Assembly: GCA_030583665.1 (NCBI GenBank)
Contig: CP129469.1
Location: forward strand, 1,426,001 to 1,490,000
Direction: 5' to 3'
Length of the DNA stretch: 64,000 nt
Source: Candidatus Jettenia sp. AMX2
GTDB taxonomy: Bacteria > Planctomycetota > Brocadiia > Brocadiales > Brocadiaceae
The position numbers and the translations under genes are program-made. This document shows positions 11,300 through 22,722 of this stretch, one piece after another (position 1 is the stretch's first letter; each line of letters opens with the position of its first letter). The notes under the pieces are model-generated. The model searched no databases. It saw only the letters and a list, made by a program, of their open reading frames with translations, and was not told the DNA's origin.

Positions 11300-11603
11300 C
11301 TTTTTTTCCCTATGTACTTTTTATACTTTGTATAGATTGTATAGATTGTAACCGCATTTCCATACTGTTGTGCATGATGCATATTTTAAAAACATAAATT
11401 GTAATTATAGCAATCAAAATAAAGTGATTCAATTTAAAATTGAAATACATACTTGAAATAACTTACTTTTTTTGTTTTAATTTGACACATCGAATGTTGA
11501 AAATCTCCTGATTTTTTCATGGTATAACTCGTCAGCTGATTTGTTTTATTCCGCCAAAAAATCCTTTCACACAAAGAAGACCTTTTAAAGATATTAGGTG
11601 ATC
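11300..11603. other. Divergent intergenic region
   Basis: Lies between moeB (minus) and the cupin lipoprotein (plus). It holds short direct repeats of TTGTATAGA near 11326-11350, just upstream of moeB, and otherwise AT-rich DNA expected to contain both promoters. No gene is seen. Confidence 0.4.
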
Positions 11604-13085
11604 ATGAATAATAAAAAATGGACGATAAGGATGCTCAGTATTTCCTTAACACTCTTTATGGTTAGTTGTACCACAGCCAGATATTATCCCACTAATTTCA
11701 TAGAATCCCTTAAACATCCTGCCAGGTTTCCGGATGTTCATCCTCCTGATGTTAAAAATGTCGAAGACGTTGCTCATAAGAACCCATTAGGTGATGATGA
11801 AGAAGTAAAAATTATCCATGTAAGTGAGAATAAAAATGCAAGCATGCATCTTATTCAGATTCGGGAGAATGCGGTGCTCCGCCCTCATTACCACAGACGC
11901 CACGACAAAGTTATTTACGTTGAAAAAGGAACAAGCATAGCCACAGTAGACGGCTCCCGTTACGTGGTAAAACCTGGTTCCATGTTACAAATCCCGAACA
12001 GAACTGTTCTTACCATCCATAATACAGGAGATGAAACGTTTGTAGCCGTAGCAATTTACTCTCCACCCTTTGATGGCAGAGATGAGAAGTTTATCGGAGG
12101 AAAGAGAAAAGCCGACAGGGGGGCAGAGACAAAAAGAAGGCTTATTGCTGCAGGGACAAAAACTGAAATAATTACCGGGGAGGATACAATATCAGATACA
12201 GACGGCCTCGAAGAGAAAGAAAACCATGGTGATACTGTTTCACCAAAAAAACTGGCGGAAAAGAATTTAAACAGGATGGTGCAGGAGGACCACAATATCA
12301 TGGAAAAGGAACGATTCCTGCAAACAGAACCATTCGTTTCTCAAGACAGAAAGGAACCAAAAGAAACAGCGTCATCTCCTGTGTCAACTGCTGAAAAACC
12401 TGCACAGGATATAAGAAAGATGCACGAAATACTTGCAAGACTCTTCAGGTTAAAGGAGAGTGGCATTCTCTCTGCGGAAGAATATGAGGAAAAGAAGGAT
12501 GCTGTTATGAAAGGGAGGGATATTGGCGAATTACCTGAAATTATCGGATATTACAGTGATCAGACAGCATTAACAGAAGATGATTTCTCTACAGGATACC
12601 CGGGATATGAATTCTCGCAGATGCCGGATGTATCTTATGGAAAGAGGAAGAGTGAGATTCCCATTTCTGAAAGAGGAAAAACCCTCTCGACTGCAGCAAG
12701 AGCATCGGGGTATCGAAAAGAAGAGAAAATAAGAGAACTTGAAGAGCTTTATCAGGAAGGGCTTATTACAAAAGATGATTATACCGTTAAGAAGGGGGAA
12801 CTTTTGGGTTCTGATGAAAGGAAAACGCTTTCAGCAATATCCGGGAATGTCCGGAACGATAAAAGACTGAGAGAGCTTAAAGAACTTTATCAGGAAGGAC
12901 TCATAACAAAAGCCGATTATGAGTTTAAACGAAAAGAACTCAGTAGTAACCCTGTTTCTCCTGCTTTTCACTCACAGGATTGGAATCAGGACGAAAAACT
13001 ATCAGAACTCAATAAATTGAGAGAACAGGGGCTTATATCAGAAGAGAATTACGAACTTAAAAAGATGAAATTACTCAATTGGTAA
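11604..13085 (+). CDS. Lipoprotein with cupin domain and four SHOCT-type repeats
   Basis: About 493 residues. ATG 11604 follows AGGTG closely; an in-frame GTG at 11598 is the alternative. The signal peptide ends with the lipobox LFMVSC. Residues about 60-165 form a cupin barrel (MHLIQIRENAVLRPHYHRRHDKVIYVEKG, then PGSMLQIPNRTVLTIHNTG) with HxH and a later His as possible metal ligands. A charged low-complexity linker follows. The last 230 residues carry four SHOCT-like modules of the form KLxELxxLxxQGLISEExYExKKxxLL (starting near 270, 375, 420 and 465). SHOCT modules usually end membrane or oligomeric proteins. The combination with a cupin is not one I recognise. Function unknown, probably membrane-tethered small-molecule sensing or scaffold. 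Confidence 0.8.
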   Translation: MNNKKWTIRMLSISLTLFMVSCTTARYYPTNFIESLKHPARFPDVHPPDVKNVEDVAHKNPLGDDEEVKIIHVSENKNASMHLIQIRENAVLRPHYHRRHDKVIYVEKGTSIATVDGSRYVVKPGSMLQIPNRTVLTIHNTGDETFVAVAIYSPPFDGRDEKFIGGKRKADRGAETKRRLIAAGTKTEIITGEDTISDTDGLEEKENHGDTVSPKKLAEKNLNRMVQEDHNIMEKERFLQTEPFVSQDRKEPKETASSPVSTAEKPAQDIRKMHEILARLFRLKESGILSAEEYEEKKDAVMKGRDIGELPEIIGYYSDQTALTEDDFSTGYPGYEFSQMPDVSYGKRKSEIPISERGKTLSTAARASGYRKEEKIRELEELYQEGLITKDDYTVKKGELLGSDERKTLSAISGNVRNDKRLRELKELYQEGLITKADYEFKRKELSSNPVSPAFHSQDWNQDEKLSELNKLREQGLISEENYELKKMKLLNW

Positions 13086-13444: not shown

Positions 13445-13567
13445 GTGGTGACTGGAAAATGGGATACTGTTGAAGCGTATAAAGAAAATAACACGAGCCG
13501 TATGACGGGAGACAGTCACGTACGGTTCTGTGGGAGGCTTGGGGGCGAAACTCCCCCTTGCCTACCC
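13445..13567 (+). ncRNA. 3' remnant of a group II intron (domains V and VI)
   Basis: 13495-13528 is a 34-nt domain V: GAGCCGTATG at the 5' side pairs with CGTACGGTTC at the 3' side, the hallmark catalytic hairpin of bacterial group II introns. It is followed directly by a domain VI-like hairpin (GGAGGC..GGGGG-CGAAA-CTCCCCC..GCC, 13532-13563) and a CCTACCC 3' end resembling the usual intron terminus. No reverse transcriptase frame or 5' GUGYG end is present upstream, so this is a truncated, presumably inactive copy lodged between two dispersed repeats. Confidence 0.75.
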
Positions 13568-13953
13568 GGCGGTGTTAAAATATGTTTTTTTGGGTAGGGC
13601 TGGCACTGCCTGCCATTGTCTGTTCCACCGGTCATTGCGAGGGGTTCGTAACGGAGTGCAGAACCCCGAAGCAATCTCAAAGACAAAGATTGCTTCGCCG
13701 TTTAAAAATATCCTGCATGTTTTAGTATATCTGCTCACAAACCGAAGATGCAACCTTTACCCTATATTGTTCGGTTTCATCTGTTTAGCGCTATAACACC
13801 CTGAAACAATGAAAATGGTCATTATGCTATATCGTATTGGTACATTTTACACTTGTACTTTTTTATTGCGTCTTATTTTCGAGTCAGTATTAAAATCTTC
13901 TCCAAAGCCTTACGTAAAAAAGGAAACCATGATTTATGGTTCTAATTATTTTT

Positions 13954-14170
13954 TAATCCCGAAGGGATGTCATGATTATAGTAAATGAACAACCAAAAAC
14001 CAACAACCCCGAAGGGGTGCTATTATTATAGCCAATGAACAACTGCTGACTAATAACCCCGAAGGGGTGGCATGATGGTAAGATGATCGTGGGTTTCCTA
14101 TGTCACCCCTTCGGGGTTAAAAATCTTTTGTATGACTTTTGCTATAATCATGACATCCCTTCGGGATTAG
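13954..14170. repeat. Array of five phased CCCCGAAGGGG palindromes, 49-50 bp apart
   Basis: Palindromes start at 13957, 14006, 14056, 14105 and 14155, an almost constant 49-50 bp period. The first three read ACCCCGAAGGGGT and the last two are the inverted ACCCCTTCGGGGT form. The inter-palindrome DNA is itself partly repeated (CATGATTATAGTAAATGAAC type), so these are not unique CRISPR-like spacers. The array at 40273-40433 is the reverse-oriented relative with four palindromes. Confidence 0.8.
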
Positions 14171-14672
14171 AAAACAAAAAATAAATCGTAATAATTCACC
14201 GCAAAGAACGCATTTGTAATTGTTTCGTATTTTGAATTTGGTTGCGGCCAAAGGCCGCGCTAGGATTACCGTTGTTTTATGCGTTATAATACCTTTCCAT
14301 CAATGTACACTAAATATTATTATGGCACATGTTTCGCTCATATATCCGGCGATTGCTTAATAAAGAGCAGGGTAAAATTACAGAGAATCTGAATATGAGC
14401 GTTCAATTACATGCAACAATAAGTATTTACATTACATTGTTCTGTTAAAAAACCACAGAAACAACCGGAAACCAGTTTAAATTCCCGGATAAAACTGGAA
14501 AGGTTACTACCAATTAGGTGGCGGAAAACATGCATTTTCCCCCATCTTTCCGACATTAAGTAGTATATAATAAATATTTCTTTAAAAACTAGGCTTTCCC
14601 AAAATGAAATATAGAGTATAAGTACTTAAAACAGGAACAATAAATCTTCAAAAATGAGAAAGGAGGGCATGA

Positions 14673-16451
14673 ATGGTATTAAAAAAAATTTTTAAGTTAT
14701 GTATTATTTTGTGTATAAGTTTTTTGTATAACCCTTTTATGGGAGGGGGGGACAAGGTCTGCTATGGTGATGAATTGTATAAAGATGAATTTGAGGGACA
14801 AACCTTAAATCCTTCATGGCTTATAGTTCGTGAGAATCAGAGTGATTGGAGTTTATCTGAACGTCCTGGCTATCTGAGAATTAAAACGAAAACTGAAAGT
14901 CTATGGCAGATAAATGTTAATAACAAAGTCAAATTATTGAGAAATGCACCCCATGGTGATTTTGATATTAGTACAAAAATTACCTATAATCCGGTACAAA
15001 AATTCCAGCAGGCAGGTCTCGTTATTTATGAAGATGAAGAAAATTATGTTATGCTTACCCGCCAAATGGATGATGTTGCCAATGTGGAAATGAGCAGGGA
15101 AATATCGCGTGTTGCGGGAAGTAAATCAGCGCCGACCACCTTAACTACACTTTTTTTGAAATTGTCAAAATCGGGTGGGCACGTTAGTGGTGCATTTAGT
15201 GAAGATGGAATTTCGTGGACAACGGTAGATGTCGTGTCTGGTGTTAAATTAAAGCATCCCAAGGTTGGCCTAGTAGGCTACAATGCCCAGTTGAATACAA
15301 CGGCAGATGCTGATTTTGATTTTTTCAAGATTGATTCATCGGAAGAAGAGGGGCTTGGTGCTGCCCTTGAGGACTTTATCGAACTGACCAAATATGGTAA
15401 ATCCATGCATGTTATGGCAATGTTAATGATTGGTTTCGGATTCCTGATGGTGTTTGTCAGACGATATGGTTATAGTGCTGTTACTGCCACTTATATTGCG
15501 GTAAGCGTGGTAATTCCTCTTTATATGTTTTTGAAATCACAGGGGTTTCTGGGTGAATCAGCCGAATTAACAATGGACAGACTGATATTAGCCCAGTTCT
15601 GTGCTGCGAGTTTGTTGATTGCCATGGGGGCATTCTTAGGAAGATTGAAGATGTCCCAGTACATAATCATGGCATGTTTGTTTGTTCCGGCTTATATGCT
15701 TAACGAATGGATTATGTTAGATAGCGGCATGGGGCTTATTCCGAAAGGATTGCTGGTTGATACCGGAGGTTCAATTGTTATTCATCAATTCGGCGCTTAT
15801 TTTGGTTTGGGTGTAATCGTAAGAATGACGACACAAGAGGATTTTAATAAAAAGATTGAATCGGACAAGATCAGTAATCAATTTTCAATGTTGGGAAGCA
15901 TGGTTTTGTGGGTATTCTGGCCGTCTTTTTGTGCAGCAGCAGCAGAAATATCAAAAATGCCTCTTGCTGCAGTAAATACCGTCATTTCACTCTGTGGAGC
16001 GACAGTATCAACCTATATAGCGAGTGCTATGATTAGGAAAAAGGTTGCTATTGAAGACATGGCCAATGCAGCGTTGGCTGGCGGTGTGGCCATCGGTTCT
16101 GCTTGTGCACATACCACCCCAAAGGCTGCCCTTATGCTAGGCTTCATTGCAGGTATTATAAGTGTAATAGGTTTTGCAGTTATTCAACCCCGGGTACAAA
16201 AGATATTAAAGGGTATCGATACCTGTGGTGTACACAACCTCCATGGTATGCCTGGCATATTAGGCGGCTTAGCAGCTATTTTTATAGCGGAAAGTGTGAT
16301 TCCGGGATTGCAAATCAAAGCCGTTGTTATTACCTTCATTATTGCGGCAATTACCGGGCTTGCTGCCGGAACGGTTGTCTCATTATTCGGGCATAGAAGA
16401 CAATCATATGATGATGCTCTGGAATTTATCGTAGAAGAAGAACACCACTAA
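14673..16451 (+). CDS. Rh-type ammonium channel fused to an exported concanavalin-like domain
   Basis: 592 residues; AGGAGGG lies 5 nt before the ATG. A signal segment (CIILCISFLYNPFM) is followed by an extracytoplasmic beta-sandwich of about 190 residues (DEFEGQTLNPSWLIVREN, GLVIYEDEENYVMLTR, SWTTVDVVSGVKL, VGLVGYNA), the DUF1349/laminin-G-like pattern common in glycoside hydrolases. Residues about 235-575 form an Amt/Mep/Rh channel. It is of the Rhesus subtype: DTGGSIVIHQFGAYFGL (pore His 371), SMLGSMVLWVFWPSF, and DTCGVHNLHGMPGILGG (His 521/524). It should conduct NH3/NH4+. The acidic C-terminus lacks a GlnK-binding-like tail that I can recognise. The domain fusion is unusual. Its promoter lies in the AT-rich 400 bp upstream, and a strong terminator follows. 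Confidence 0.9.
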   Translation: MVLKKIFKLCIILCISFLYNPFMGGGDKVCYGDELYKDEFEGQTLNPSWLIVRENQSDWSLSERPGYLRIKTKTESLWQINVNNKVKLLRNAPHGDFDISTKITYNPVQKFQQAGLVIYEDEENYVMLTRQMDDVANVEMSREISRVAGSKSAPTTLTTLFLKLSKSGGHVSGAFSEDGISWTTVDVVSGVKLKHPKVGLVGYNAQLNTTADADFDFFKIDSSEEEGLGAALEDFIELTKYGKSMHVMAMLMIGFGFLMVFVRRYGYSAVTATYIAVSVVIPLYMFLKSQGFLGESAELTMDRLILAQFCAASLLIAMGAFLGRLKMSQYIIMACLFVPAYMLNEWIMLDSGMGLIPKGLLVDTGGSIVIHQFGAYFGLGVIVRMTTQEDFNKKIESDKISNQFSMLGSMVLWVFWPSFCAAAAEISKMPLAAVNTVISLCGATVSTYIASAMIRKKVAIEDMANAALAGGVAIGSACAHTTPKAALMLGFIAGIISVIGFAVIQPRVQKILKGIDTCGVHNLHGMPGILGGLAAIFIAESVIPGLQIKAVVITFIIAAITGLAAGTVVSLFGHRRQSYDDALEFIVEEEHH

Positions 16452-16503: not shown

Positions 16504-16542
16504 TAAAAAAACCTCCTGCATTTTTCGTGCAGGAGGTTTTTT
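16504..16542 (+). terminator. Rho-independent terminator of the Rh channel gene
   Basis: ACCTCCTGCA (16511-16520) pairs perfectly with TGCAGGAGGT (16528-16537), loop TTTTTCG, then a six-T tract. The A-run before it suggests bidirectional function. Confidence 0.92.
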
Positions 16543-19491: not shown

Positions 19492-19863
19492 ATGTTTGTT
19501 GGTATTGATATTGTAGGAATTAAACGGATTGAAAAATTGTTTTCTTCTCACGAGGGTTTCCTAAAAAGGATTTATACTGAAAAAGAGGTTGAATACTGTA
19601 AGCCCAAAAAAAACAAATACCAACATTTTGCCGTGCGTTTTGCAGCAAAAGAGGCTGTCTTTAAAGCTTTAGGGACAGGTTGGATTGGTACAATGAAATG
19701 GACAGATATTGAGCTTTTAAATGACGCATTAGGGAAGCCATACCTGAACCTTTATGGAAGTGTGAAAGAACTGGCAGACAAAAAAAATATTAGTACCGTT
19801 TCTGTATCGGTATCTCATTGTCATGAGTATGCGGTTGCCCAGGTGCTGTTGGTAACGAAATAA
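19492..19863 (+). CDS. acpS: Holo-[acyl-carrier-protein] synthase
   Basis: Transfers phosphopantetheine from CoA to apo-ACP. 123 residues. FVGIDIVGIKRIE at the N-terminus holds the Mg-binding Asp, RFAAKEAVFKALGTG is the CoA/Mg motif with its Glu and Lys, and VSVSHCHEYAVAQV is the C-terminal signature. Its position just before a radical SAM enzyme and two ketosynthase-like genes is suggestive. A terminator separates it from them, so it forms its own transcription unit. Confidence 0.95.
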   Translation: MFVGIDIVGIKRIEKLFSSHEGFLKRIYTEKEVEYCKPKKNKYQHFAVRFAAKEAVFKALGTGWIGTMKWTDIELLNDALGKPYLNLYGSVKELADKKNISTVSVSVSHCHEYAVAQVLLVTK

Positions 19864-19893
19864 ATGGTTAAAAAGTGACACGGAAGATTCCAT

Positions 19894-19922
19894 GAGAAAC
19901 TTAGGTTTCTCCGTTTTTTTTG
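19894..19922 (+). terminator. Rho-independent terminator of acpS
   Basis: GAGAAAC (19894-19900), loop TTAG, GTTTCTC (19905-19911), then an eight-T tract after CG. Confidence 0.85.
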
Positions 19923-19962
19923 TATTTTTTGAAAAGAGGTACGATTGTCAGAGGGAATATTC

Positions 19963-21450
19963 ATGAAAAAACTTATACTTATTAATCCTCATCCGATTGG
20001 AAACGTTGGAGAAGAGAATGTCTCCGTGTTAAATCAGATGCCGGTGAATCTTGGGTATTTAAAAGTGTTGACGCCACAAAACTGGCAGGTTGATATCATT
20101 GACGAAACTCAGGAACTGGCCATTGATAATATGGGTGATATTACCTTTGGCGATGCGGATTTGGTAGGTATTACGTCAGTAAGCTATCAGGCACATCGTG
20201 CATATCAGATAGCTGCTGCCTGTAAAAAACGGGGCATGCCGGTGATCATGGGCGGAATTCATGCTACCAGCTATCCGGAAGAGGTAGCTCAATACGTAGA
20301 TTGTGTTGTTACAAGGGAAGCCATAACCCTTTGGACAAAGATTATTGCCGACTTTGAAAAAGGCTCTCTTCAAAAAAGGTACGATGGAGAATTAACGCCA
20401 ATGGAGCTTTATAATACCTTGAGGCCTGACAGAGAATACTTAAAAAATAAATATAAATACCGGTATTCTGGTATTATAACAACTGCAGGATGCCCCTTTA
20501 GTTGTGAGTTTTGTTCTGTACCACAATTCCAGGGTAAAAAGTACCGGGAAAGGCCTATTGAGGATATCCTGGACGAATTGGAGTCAATAAAAGGCCAATA
20601 CCGTGGCCTCATATTAACAGATGAAAATTTTTACGGTCACAGCAAAAAATCAAATGAAAGGGTACGTGCGCTTTTTAAGGGAATGGTAGAGAGGGGGATT
20701 TATCAGAATTGGTTTGGCTTTACTTCTCTTAATATCTACAAAGACGATGAAACACTTGAATATATGGTGAAAAGCGGATGTGTCGGGGTACTCATCGGGA
20801 TTGAATCTATTGATGAAGAAGCCTTGAAAACGATGAACAAGAATGTAAATTTACGCATTACGATAGAAAAGTATTTTGAGGCTATTGCCAATATCCGGAA
20901 ACATGGCCTTGCTGTATGGGGAACTATGGTTTTTGGGAATGATACAGATACCCCTGATACCTTTAAACAAGTTGCCGATTTTGTATTGAATTCCTCTGTG
21001 GATATCATGACGTGTGGTATTCTCTGCCCATTTATTAATACGCCGCTTTATCACAGGTTGAAAAGTGAAAACAGGTTGTTTAGAACCAATTTTCCTGATG
21101 ACTGGAAATATTATACATCCCATCATCTTACGTATATCCTTAAAAACATGCCTCTCCAGGAATTAATTAATGGTTTTCAATATTTATATGACAAGATTTA
21201 TGCTACAGAAGTGTTGCGCCAAAGATTCCAGAATGCCAGGGAAATACTTGGTAAGAATAATATGAATGCCGCAATGTTTGCATTCAGGGTCAATCTGGAC
21301 TGGCAGAATGTATACCAGCATCTCATCCAGAACCTAAAAGAGCTACAGGTTTCCGGATATTATGATGAAGTATTAAAGCTTTATAACCAGTCAAAAAAAT
21401 ACGGGGATAAAGAAAAGTTAATACCGGTAGGAATAGTAGGTAGTAGGTAG
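19963..21450 (+). CDS. B12-binding-domain radical SAM protein
   Basis: About 495 residues. ATG 19963 has GAGGG 7 nt upstream; a TTG at 19945 is the alternative. The N-terminal cobalamin-binding-like Rossmann domain (KKLILINPHPIGN, DLVGITSVSYQAHRAYQIA, PVIMGGIHATSYPEE) lacks an obvious DxHxxG. The radical SAM core has CPFSCEFCSVPQF, with cluster Cys spaced CxxxCxxC, and GVLIGIESIDEEALKTMNK. The architecture is that of BchE/HpnJ-type methylases and cyclases. In this window it heads a unit with two ketosynthase-like genes. The substrate is not visible; a lipid-chain modification is an inference from its neighbours. Confidence 0.88.
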   Translation: MKKLILINPHPIGNVGEENVSVLNQMPVNLGYLKVLTPQNWQVDIIDETQELAIDNMGDITFGDADLVGITSVSYQAHRAYQIAAACKKRGMPVIMGGIHATSYPEEVAQYVDCVVTREAITLWTKIIADFEKGSLQKRYDGELTPMELYNTLRPDREYLKNKYKYRYSGIITTAGCPFSCEFCSVPQFQGKKYRERPIEDILDELESIKGQYRGLILTDENFYGHSKKSNERVRALFKGMVERGIYQNWFGFTSLNIYKDDETLEYMVKSGCVGVLIGIESIDEEALKTMNKNVNLRITIEKYFEAIANIRKHGLAVWGTMVFGNDTDTPDTFKQVADFVLNSSVDIMTCGILCPFINTPLYHRLKSENRLFRTNFPDDWKYYTSHHLTYILKNMPLQELINGFQYLYDKIYATEVLRQRFQNAREILGKNNMNAAMFAFRVNLDWQNVYQHLIQNLKELQVSGYYDEVLKLYNQSKKYGDKEKLIPVGIVGSR

Positions 21451-21474
21451 TATTTTTTTTACTACCAACTATTC
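21431..21474. repeat. 14-bp inverted repeat at the 3' end of the radical SAM gene
   Basis: 21431-21444 and 21461-21474 pair at 13 of 14 positions, and eight T lie in the loop region. The left arm lies within the last codons (VGIVGSR), which are built from tandem GTAGGTA units. Possible weak terminator or attenuator before the ketosynthase. Confidence 0.4.
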
Positions 21475-21510
21475 AAAAGTCCCATAGTGACAATTGAGAT
21501 ATCTGAAAAT

Positions 21511-22722
21511 ATGCCAAAAGTAGTAATTACGGGATTAGGTTTGGTCACCCCTGTCGGGATAGGTGTTAAGGAGAGTTGGCAGTCCTTTATCACCGGTAAA
21601 GACGGGGCCAACGAAATGAGGTCATTTGATACCTCTTTCTATAAGGTTCACCGTTCTTGTGAGGTAAAAAATTTTCAACTTGATGGAGAGTTAGAGAACC
21701 AGATAAAAGAAAACACCATTCATAAATACCTCTATTATGCAGCACGTGAGGCTTTACATGAGAGCGGCCTCCTCGATAATAAGAGCCACGACAGGGAAAG
21801 GTTTGGCATTGCCGTTGGTACCCTTGCAGCCGAATTAACCCCTTATGAGAGGCTTCAAAGGCAAGATACCTTAAAAAAAGATAACGGTTTCAACCATATT
21901 GTTGCTGCGGTTTATCCTCCGAATTCTCTTACCAGGACCCTTGCGCACTATTTCCATTTTGAAGGACCGGCCATGATCTCACTGAATGCCTGTTCGTCAG
22001 GCAATCATGCCATAGCCTGGGCTTATGACCTTCTTGCAGAAAACAAGCTCGATGTCGTTTTGATTGGCGGTGGAGATATGATTCCCCAGACCGAATTCAC
22101 CCATTTTCACAACCTTAAGGCGCTGGCGCCCAAACGCTGTCAGCCTTTTGATAAAAACCGGCAGGGGCTTATGATCGGAGAAGGGGCGGGAGTGCTGATT
22201 ATGGAACGTTATGAGTTTGCAAAAAAACGCGGGGCTGCTATTATTGCAGAGATGGCAGGATATGGTTTAAGTTGTGACGGATTTCATATGACGGCGCCGC
22301 ATCCTGAAGGTGAAGGGGCTGTAAAATGCATGAGTAACGCGCTAAAAATGGCCAGTCTTTCAGAAACAGATATTGATTATATTAATGCGCATGGTACGGG
22401 AACCCCCCATAATGACAAAACAGAAACAATTGCGATAAAACAGGTATTTAAGGATCACGCTTATAAGATTCCGTGTAGTTCTACAAAATCCATGATAGGC
22501 CATCTTATGGGTGCTGCAAGTGCCGTGGAATCTGTTGTTTGCTGCCTTGTATTAAAGCATGGAATAGTTCCTCCTACAATTAACTATGAGACACCGGATC
22601 CGGAATGCGATCTTGATTATGTACCAAATAAAGCGCGGGAACGAACGTTAAGATGCATCCTTAATAATTCATTTGCCTTCGGCGGTAATAATGCAACGAC
22701 GATATTTAAAAAGCCGGAATAA
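21511..22722 (+). CDS. Beta-ketoacyl-ACP synthase II-type, catalytic (KSalpha)
   Basis: FabF-fold condensing enzyme with the full catalytic triad: Cys 161 in NACSSG, His 294 in AHGTGTPHND and His 331 in SMIGHLMGAA (numbering from ATG 21511). The start is chosen because family members begin MxxVVITGxG; an in-frame GTG at 21487 would add eight residues, and neither has a strong Shine-Dalgarno sequence. It should elongate acyl-ACP with malonyl-ACP. About 400 residues, normal length. It is followed 126 bp later by a second KS-fold protein without catalytic residues, the arrangement seen in KS/chain-length-factor pairs of type II polyketide and aryl-polyene systems. Confidence 0.93.
   Translation: MPKVVITGLGLVTPVGIGVKESWQSFITGKDGANEMRSFDTSFYKVHRSCEVKNFQLDGELENQIKENTIHKYLYYAAREALHESGLLDNKSHDRERFGIAVGTLAAELTPYERLQRQDTLKKDNGFNHIVAAVYPPNSLTRTLAHYFHFEGPAMISLNACSSGNHAIAWAYDLLAENKLDVVLIGGGDMIPQTEFTHFHNLKALAPKRCQPFDKNRQGLMIGEGAGVLIMERYEFAKKRGAAIIAEMAGYGLSCDGFHMTAPHPEGEGAVKCMSNALKMASLSETDIDYINAHGTGTPHNDKTETIAIKQVFKDHAYKIPCSSTKSMIGHLMGAASAVESVVCCLVLKHGIVPPTINYETPDPECDLDYVPNKARERTLRCILNNSFAFGGNNATTIFKKPE

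What the first reader, a model, noticed from the sequence alone, without database searches (positions are those of the whole stretch)
14673..16451. Rh ammonium channel with an extracytoplasmic lectin-like domain
A signal peptide and about 190 residues of DUF1349/laminin-G-like beta sandwich precede a Rhesus-type channel in one chain. Amt proteins with cytoplasmic signalling tails are known, but an exported N-terminal sensor or binding domain on an Rh channel is unusual. It could dock the channel to a partner, sense a ligand, or cap the pore in an organism that lives on ammonium.
Basis: partly seen in the sequence, partly recalled or inferred. Interest (0 to 1): 0.7.

Follow-up and report, generated by a model that had tools for sequence, protein, structure and literature searches.

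The report
Ammonia channel with exported lectin-like domain
In an anammox bacterium, one gene really does fuse an exported sugar-enzyme-type (lectin-like) domain to a Rhesus-type ammonia channel; this fusion was already noted in a related species in 2020, and related genera carry only a shrunken remnant of the domain, so it is an accessory part whose job is still unknown.

Summary
Window 14673-16451 is one intact 592-codon gene: signal peptide, GH43_C2/ConA-like beta-sandwich (residues 37-220), then a complete Rh50 channel (238-586; nearest solved relative Nitrosomonas europaea Rh50). The genome is an anammox bacterium of the Loosdrechtia genus. The fusion is not new: the Kuenenia orthologue (KSMBR1_2086/kustc0381) was reported in 2020 with the same N-terminal domain, on one transcript, induced by ammonium limitation, role unknown. 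New here: (1) the folded domain occurs on Rh only in three anammox genera (Loosdrechtia, Jettenia, Kuenenia; 8 of 8 genomes), and no other Rh relative examined has it; (2) other Brocadiaceae, including Brocadia, keep the signal peptide but only a 60-80-residue linker, and in four of these groups the linker matches the two ends of the domain and lacks the same ~118 central residues: an internal deletion; (3) where kept, the domain is under purifying selection about as strong as the channel (dN/dS 0.04-0.10), whereas the remnant is relaxed (0.35-0.94). So the domain is dispensable for an Rh channel yet maintained in three genera. Most likely it is a non-catalytic binding or docking module on the outer face of the channel trimer. 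Its ligand and membrane are untested.

The parts
14660..14667 (+). Shine-Dalgarno-like sequence AAGGAGGG
   Evidence: sequence
14673..14765 (+). signal peptide, about residues 1-31 (hydrophobic helix 2-22)
   Evidence: sequence; helix 2-22 in the AF2 model; homologous signal peptides in other Brocadiaceae Rh proteins. Cleavage site not computed
14781..15332 (+). GH43_C2 / ConA-like beta-sandwich domain, residues 37-220
   Evidence: Pfam PF17851 E 2e-24; profile vs PDB GH43 enzymes E 4e-12
14850..15203 (+). stretch (about residues 60-177) missing from the short Rh proteins of Brocadia and related groups
   Evidence: HMM of short linkers matches residues 29-59 and 178-212 of this protein, in order
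15333..15383 (+). acidic linker to TM1, residues 221-237
   Evidence: sequence
15384..16430 (+). Rh50 ammonia channel core, residues 238-586; D363, H371, H524, F309, F419 invariant in 41 aligned Rh proteins
   Evidence: phmmer vs NeRh50 E 1e-108; Foldseek 3b9w TM 0.92; alignment A2
16506..16542 (+). intrinsic (bidirectional) terminator
   Evidence: 16-bp stem, -23.9 kcal/mol, z -7.95
11598..13085 (+). upstream neighbour: predicted lipoprotein with a cupin and four SHOCT repeats, syntenic with Rh in many Brocadiaceae
   Evidence: Pfam; found upstream of Rh in 17 named loci. Part of the context, not of the fusion

Best explanation
The gene encodes a Rh50-type NH3/NH4+ channel that carries on its extracytoplasmic N-terminus a non-catalytic beta-sandwich of the GH43_C2 (beta-xylosidase C-terminal, ConA-like) family. 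Shown: one gene and one reading frame; a channel core with the conserved Rh pore residues; the domain confined to three anammox genera among the genomes searched; purifying selection on it there; a truncated, relaxed remnant in four sister groups. Inferred: N-out topology (from sequence); the domain was added once in an ancestor of the Brocadiaceae, and its middle was later deleted in the line or lines leading to Brocadia and related genera. Inferred: three copies sit around the outer face of the channel trimer and bind a fixed partner (a cell-envelope glycan, glycoprotein or protein), placing or anchoring the channel rather than gating it. The Kuenenia orthologue is induced by ammonium limitation, so ammonium uptake or retention is the likely job of the channel; which membrane holds it is unknown.
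For: Domain calls. Rh core fold match TM 0.92 to NeRh50. Same fusion in 8/8 Loosdrechtia, Jettenia and Kuenenia genomes, short form in other Brocadiaceae. Short-linker HMM hits both ends of the domain in order, 12-29 bits in the 8 proteins, against a best of 13.9 bits among 4000 shuffles and <1 bit for reversed sequences; separate HMMs for Brocadia, g7, g5 and g10 each beat all 4000 shuffles with the same breakpoint. Domain dN/dS 0.035-0.10 against Rh 0.02-0.07, remnant 0.35-0.94. Rh and rpoB trees agree on the supported groups, as expected of vertical descent. Conserved synteny. In Kuenenia: one transcript, up under ammonium limitation (PMC7438415); protein recovered 94% in the membrane fraction (PMC11897245).
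Against: No ligand, partner or localisation is shown. GH43_C2 domains in known enzymes are structural and active-site-supporting parts of the glycosidase rather than proven independent lectins (own knowledge), so 'binding module' is an inference. The AF2 model of the domain is poor (pLDDT about 40), so its placement over the trimer is not modelled. The g6 genome has a short linker yet groups with Kuenenia, so more than one loss, or a regain, may be needed.
Confidence: 0.55

Rival explanations
1. Sensor or gate: the exported domain binds a small ligand and modulates the channel, making an outward-facing transceptor.
For: Anammox bacteria already use an Amt as a sensor (Ks-Amt5 histidine kinase, PMC5764959); strong selection on the domain; PMC7438415 suggests a function other than transport is possible.
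Against: No cytoplasmic signalling tail on this protein; the domain is dispensable in Brocadia and its relatives, whose channel core remains under strong constraint.
Confidence: 0.15
2. Structural part: the sandwich only stabilises the trimer or shields the pore mouth, without a partner.
For: Beta-sandwiches of GH43 enzymes pack against their partner domain (own knowledge); short acidic linker to TM1.
Against: Other Rh proteins, including those of the sister genera, keep an intact channel core without it; half the domain positions (97 of 193) are invariant in 8 sequences, more than a mere spacer would need.
Confidence: 0.2
3. The short form is ancestral and the lectin-like domain was inserted into the linker, or regained by recombination, in Kuenenia and in the Jettenia/Loosdrechtia ancestor.
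For: The Rh core tree puts the two domain-bearing groups apart, and g6 with a short linker is next to Kuenenia in both trees.
Against: The linker's outer pieces correspond to the ends of the domain, and the first of these is itself part of the GH43_C2 homology to enzymes outside anammox, which an insertion cannot explain; holding Brocadia, g7, g5 and g10 as one clade is not rejected (AU p 0.43 Rh, 0.32 rpoB). Recombinational regain is not excluded.
Confidence: 0.12
4. Assembly or annotation artefact joining two genes.
For: None found.
Against: Same fusion in 8 genomes of three genera, shared synteny, one transcript in Kuenenia.
Confidence: 0.01

Closest known systems
Kuenenia stuttgartiensis AmtB/amt1 (KSMBR1_2086, kustc0381, UniProt Q1PV65)
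   Same: Orthologue: same signal peptide - ConA-like - Rh50 order; Kuenenia proteins are 71-72% identical to this one; reported with the N-terminal domain in PMC7438415
   Different: Different genus (Loosdrechtia); the published note stops at 'role unclear' and gives no distribution or evolution
Nitrosomonas europaea Rh50 (PDB 3b9w, 3bhs)
   Same: Channel core, about 50% identity, TM 0.92
   Different: No N-terminal domain
Brocadia Rh50
   Same: Orthologue in the same gene neighbourhood, homologous signal peptide and channel
   Different: Only a 60-80-residue remnant of the domain, with the central ~118 residues gone
GH43 beta-xylosidase C-terminal ConA-like domain (PF17851; PDB 6ms3, 5joz, 1yrz)
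   Same: Sequence family of the N-terminal domain
   Different: There it follows a catalytic five-bladed propeller; here there is no enzyme domain
Ks-Amt5 (PDB 6eu6) and other Amt-signalling fusions
   Same: Amt/Rh channel with an added domain, anammox host
   Different: Added domain is C-terminal, cytoplasmic, a histidine kinase

Membership tests
Rh50 branch of Amt/Mep/Rh | Sequence and fold nearest to Rh, not Amt | tested here: met
   NeRh50 E 1e-108 and TM 0.92, RhCG E 6e-55, AmtB E ~1e-9; TIGR00836 amt 106.7 bits, far below its 343-bit cut-off
Rh50 branch of Amt/Mep/Rh | Pore twin-His and conserved Asp | tested here: met
   D363, H371, H524 invariant in 41 Rh sequences; equivalence to AmtB D160/H168/H318 assigned by hand from motif spacing
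Rh50 branch of Amt/Mep/Rh | 11 TM helices with N-terminus outside, trimer | tested here: inconclusive
   AF2 monomer gives the Rh fold with a helix series from residue 225; K/R-rich loops alternate as expected for N-out (by eye); trimer not tested
Rh50 branch of Amt/Mep/Rh | Conducts NH3/NH4+ | not testable with these tools
   no assay
GH43_C2 (PF17851) domain | Full-length profile match above cut-off | tested here: met
   86.7 bits, cut-off 22.7, profile 1-202 of 203
GH43_C2 (PF17851) domain | ConA-like sandwich fold | tested here: inconclusive
   models all-beta but of low confidence; fold rests on homology to solved GH43 domains
Lectin | Carbohydrate binding | not testable with these tools
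   no binding data; PMC7438415 calls it unclear
GH43 glycosidase | Catalytic propeller domain | tested here: not met
   no GH43 catalytic family matched in the protein

The most novel reading that the evidence does not exclude
An ammonia channel regulated or positioned from outside the cell (or from the anammoxosome lumen) by a lectin-like domain binding a glycan: the first Amt/Rh protein with an extracytoplasmic regulatory or anchoring domain, kept only in some anammox genera.
Probability: 0.15. Interest if true: 0.7.

Novelty: new member of a known kind. Interest (0 to 1): 0.36.

Why it matters
Anammox bacteria live on ammonium and carry many Amt/Rh proteins whose division of labour is unknown. 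This one has an outside domain kept under selection in three genera and cut down in Brocadia and relatives, which gives a natural with/without comparison for testing what the domain does.

Tried and rejected
Assembly error: rejected (orthologues and synteny). Domain common in Rh proteins: rejected within 80 named Rh loci. AF2 of the full chain gave a good channel but an unusable N-terminal domain; a domain-only run with 5 sequences was worse (pLDDT 40), so no placement over the pore is claimed and no fold search was made with it. Laying the whole genome in the box was not possible. A literature search on GH43 C-terminal domain function found nothing with all terms. For the g9 linker the remnant test was not significant; the g6 linker matches the other short linkers (above all 2000 shuffles, by a small margin) but not the domain itself beyond chance; the g8 gene was cut at a contig end and not tested.

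Full report
What is there. The ORF at 14673-16451 is one gene of 592 codons with a good ribosome-binding site and its own terminator. Residues 1-31 are a signal peptide; residues 37-220 match nearly the whole GH43_C2 profile (E 2e-24) and DUF1349 (E 2e-11); residues 238-586 are a Rh50 channel. A profile of five orthologous domains finds the C-terminal domains of solved GH43 beta-xylosidases (E 4e-12). The channel core superposes on N. europaea Rh50 (TM 0.92), and the residues equivalent to the twin histidines (H371, H524) and the pore aspartate (D363) are invariant in 41 Rh proteins (equivalence assigned by hand). AF2 models of the N-terminal domain are of low confidence, so its fold rests on homology.

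Where it lives. It has four other Amt proteins and no other GH43_C2 domain.

What is already known. [quoted passage not shown] Medema et al. list kustc0381 in their predicted anammoxosomal sub-proteome (PMC2881027); Matassi described the Rh50 family including Kuenenia's (PMC5209957); proteomics places it in the membrane fraction (PMC11897245). PMC7438415 was the only held paper joining the terms ammonium transporter, concanavalin A-like and anammox.

Distribution. In 392 Planctomycetota genomes the domain fused to Rh occurs in exactly 8: two Loosdrechtia, three Jettenia, three Kuenenia (genus names from the named copies L057-L059 and, for L078, from the tree and sequence; Jettenia and Kuenenia genomes also by size). 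The other Brocadiaceae Rh proteins have a homologous signal peptide and a 60-80-residue linker; Rh proteins elsewhere (80 named loci from many phyla) have a signal peptide or short leader and no extra domain. Only the 80 best of 447 Rh relatives could be inspected.

The short linkers are remnants. An HMM of 19 short linkers, with the shared pre-TM part removed, hits the domain-bearing proteins twice in order: linker 1-32 on the start of the domain and linker 30-64 on its end, skipping about 118 residues. Scores of 12-29 bits compare with a maximum of 13.9 in 4000 shuffles and under 1 for reversed sequences. Separate HMMs of Brocadia, g7, g5 and g10 each beat all 4000 shuffles and share the breakpoint; g9 and g6 alone do not, though the g6 linker matches the other short linkers (11.4 bits against a best of 10.7 in 2000 shuffles). 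Because the first outer piece is itself part of the GH43_C2 homology to enzymes outside anammox, deletion is a better reading than insertion.

Trees. The Rh-core and rpoB trees both give Loosdrechtia+Jettenia and Kuenenia+g6 and leave the backbone unresolved. A single clade of Brocadia, g7, g5 and g10 is not rejected (AU p 0.43 and 0.32), so one deletion would suffice for them; adding g6 lowers it to about 0.15. A single clade of all domain-bearing Rh cores is also not rejected (p 0.17). The number of losses is therefore open.

Selection. Pairwise dN/dS (Nei-Gojobori; many dS values between genera are near saturation) is 0.035-0.10 for the domain and 0.02-0.07 for the channel, but 0.35-0.94 for the remnant linkers of Brocadia, whose own channels stay at 0.02-0.05. 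The linker values rest on only 66-70 aligned codons. The domain is thus constrained where it survives and not needed for the channel elsewhere.

Context. The order cupin/SHOCT lipoprotein - Rh - (GDT1) - small membrane protein - TrpC - thioredoxin is conserved across most Brocadiaceae loci, which supports orthology and rules out a local misassembly. The Rh gene has its own terminator and a 1.6-kb upstream gap here, so it is probably monocistronic (inference).

Mechanism. Signal peptide, Rh fold with N-out and K/R-rich alternating loops place the sandwich on the non-cytoplasmic side. In the Amt/Rh trimer that would set three sandwiches around the outer vestibules (own knowledge and inference). 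I favour a binding/docking role (0.55 for the whole account), then a structural role (0.2), then ligand sensing or gating (0.15).

Limits. No ligand, membrane or complex was tested; counts of genera depend on the genomes held; the g8 gene was incomplete; 'g' numbers are the unnamed genus groups.

Noticed in passing
window 13493-13570 (+): Rfam group II intron match (RF00029, 53.8 bits) with no reverse-transcriptase ORF in the surrounding gap: probably an intron remnant or ORF-less intron.
   Followed up: no
window 13946-14177: Palindromic CCCCGAAGGGG units at 50-bp spacing, three one way and then two in inverted orientation (74-nt inverted arms, 80% complementary); REP/MITE-like.
   Followed up: partly
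window 11598-13085 (+): Predicted lipoprotein with one cupin and four SHOCT repeats, upstream of Rh in 17 named Brocadiaceae loci at only about 38-47% identity: a fast-evolving constant neighbour of unknown function.
   Followed up: partly
window 19492-22722: acpS-like, B12-binding radical SAM protein (nearest TIGR04479 and TIGR04072 'lipid biosynthesis' models, both far below cut-off) and a ketoacyl-synthase-like ORF in a row; possible lipid (ladderane-type) genes.
   Followed up: no
L004 (G000:C1:301811-302992): A 677-codon Amt in the same genome, of about the length of the Ks-Amt5 sensor-kinase fusion; not checked for a kinase domain.
   Followed up: no
L046, L048 (other Planctomycetota): Free-standing exported ~220-residue proteins made only of this domain type, with similar REDxxDWxL and WxxxxNK motifs; possible source family of the fused domain.
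   Followed up: partly
L164 (G328:C124) and L166 (G168:C3): Second, diverged or broken-up rpoB-like sequences in two Jettenia genomes besides the intact rpoB.
   Followed up: no
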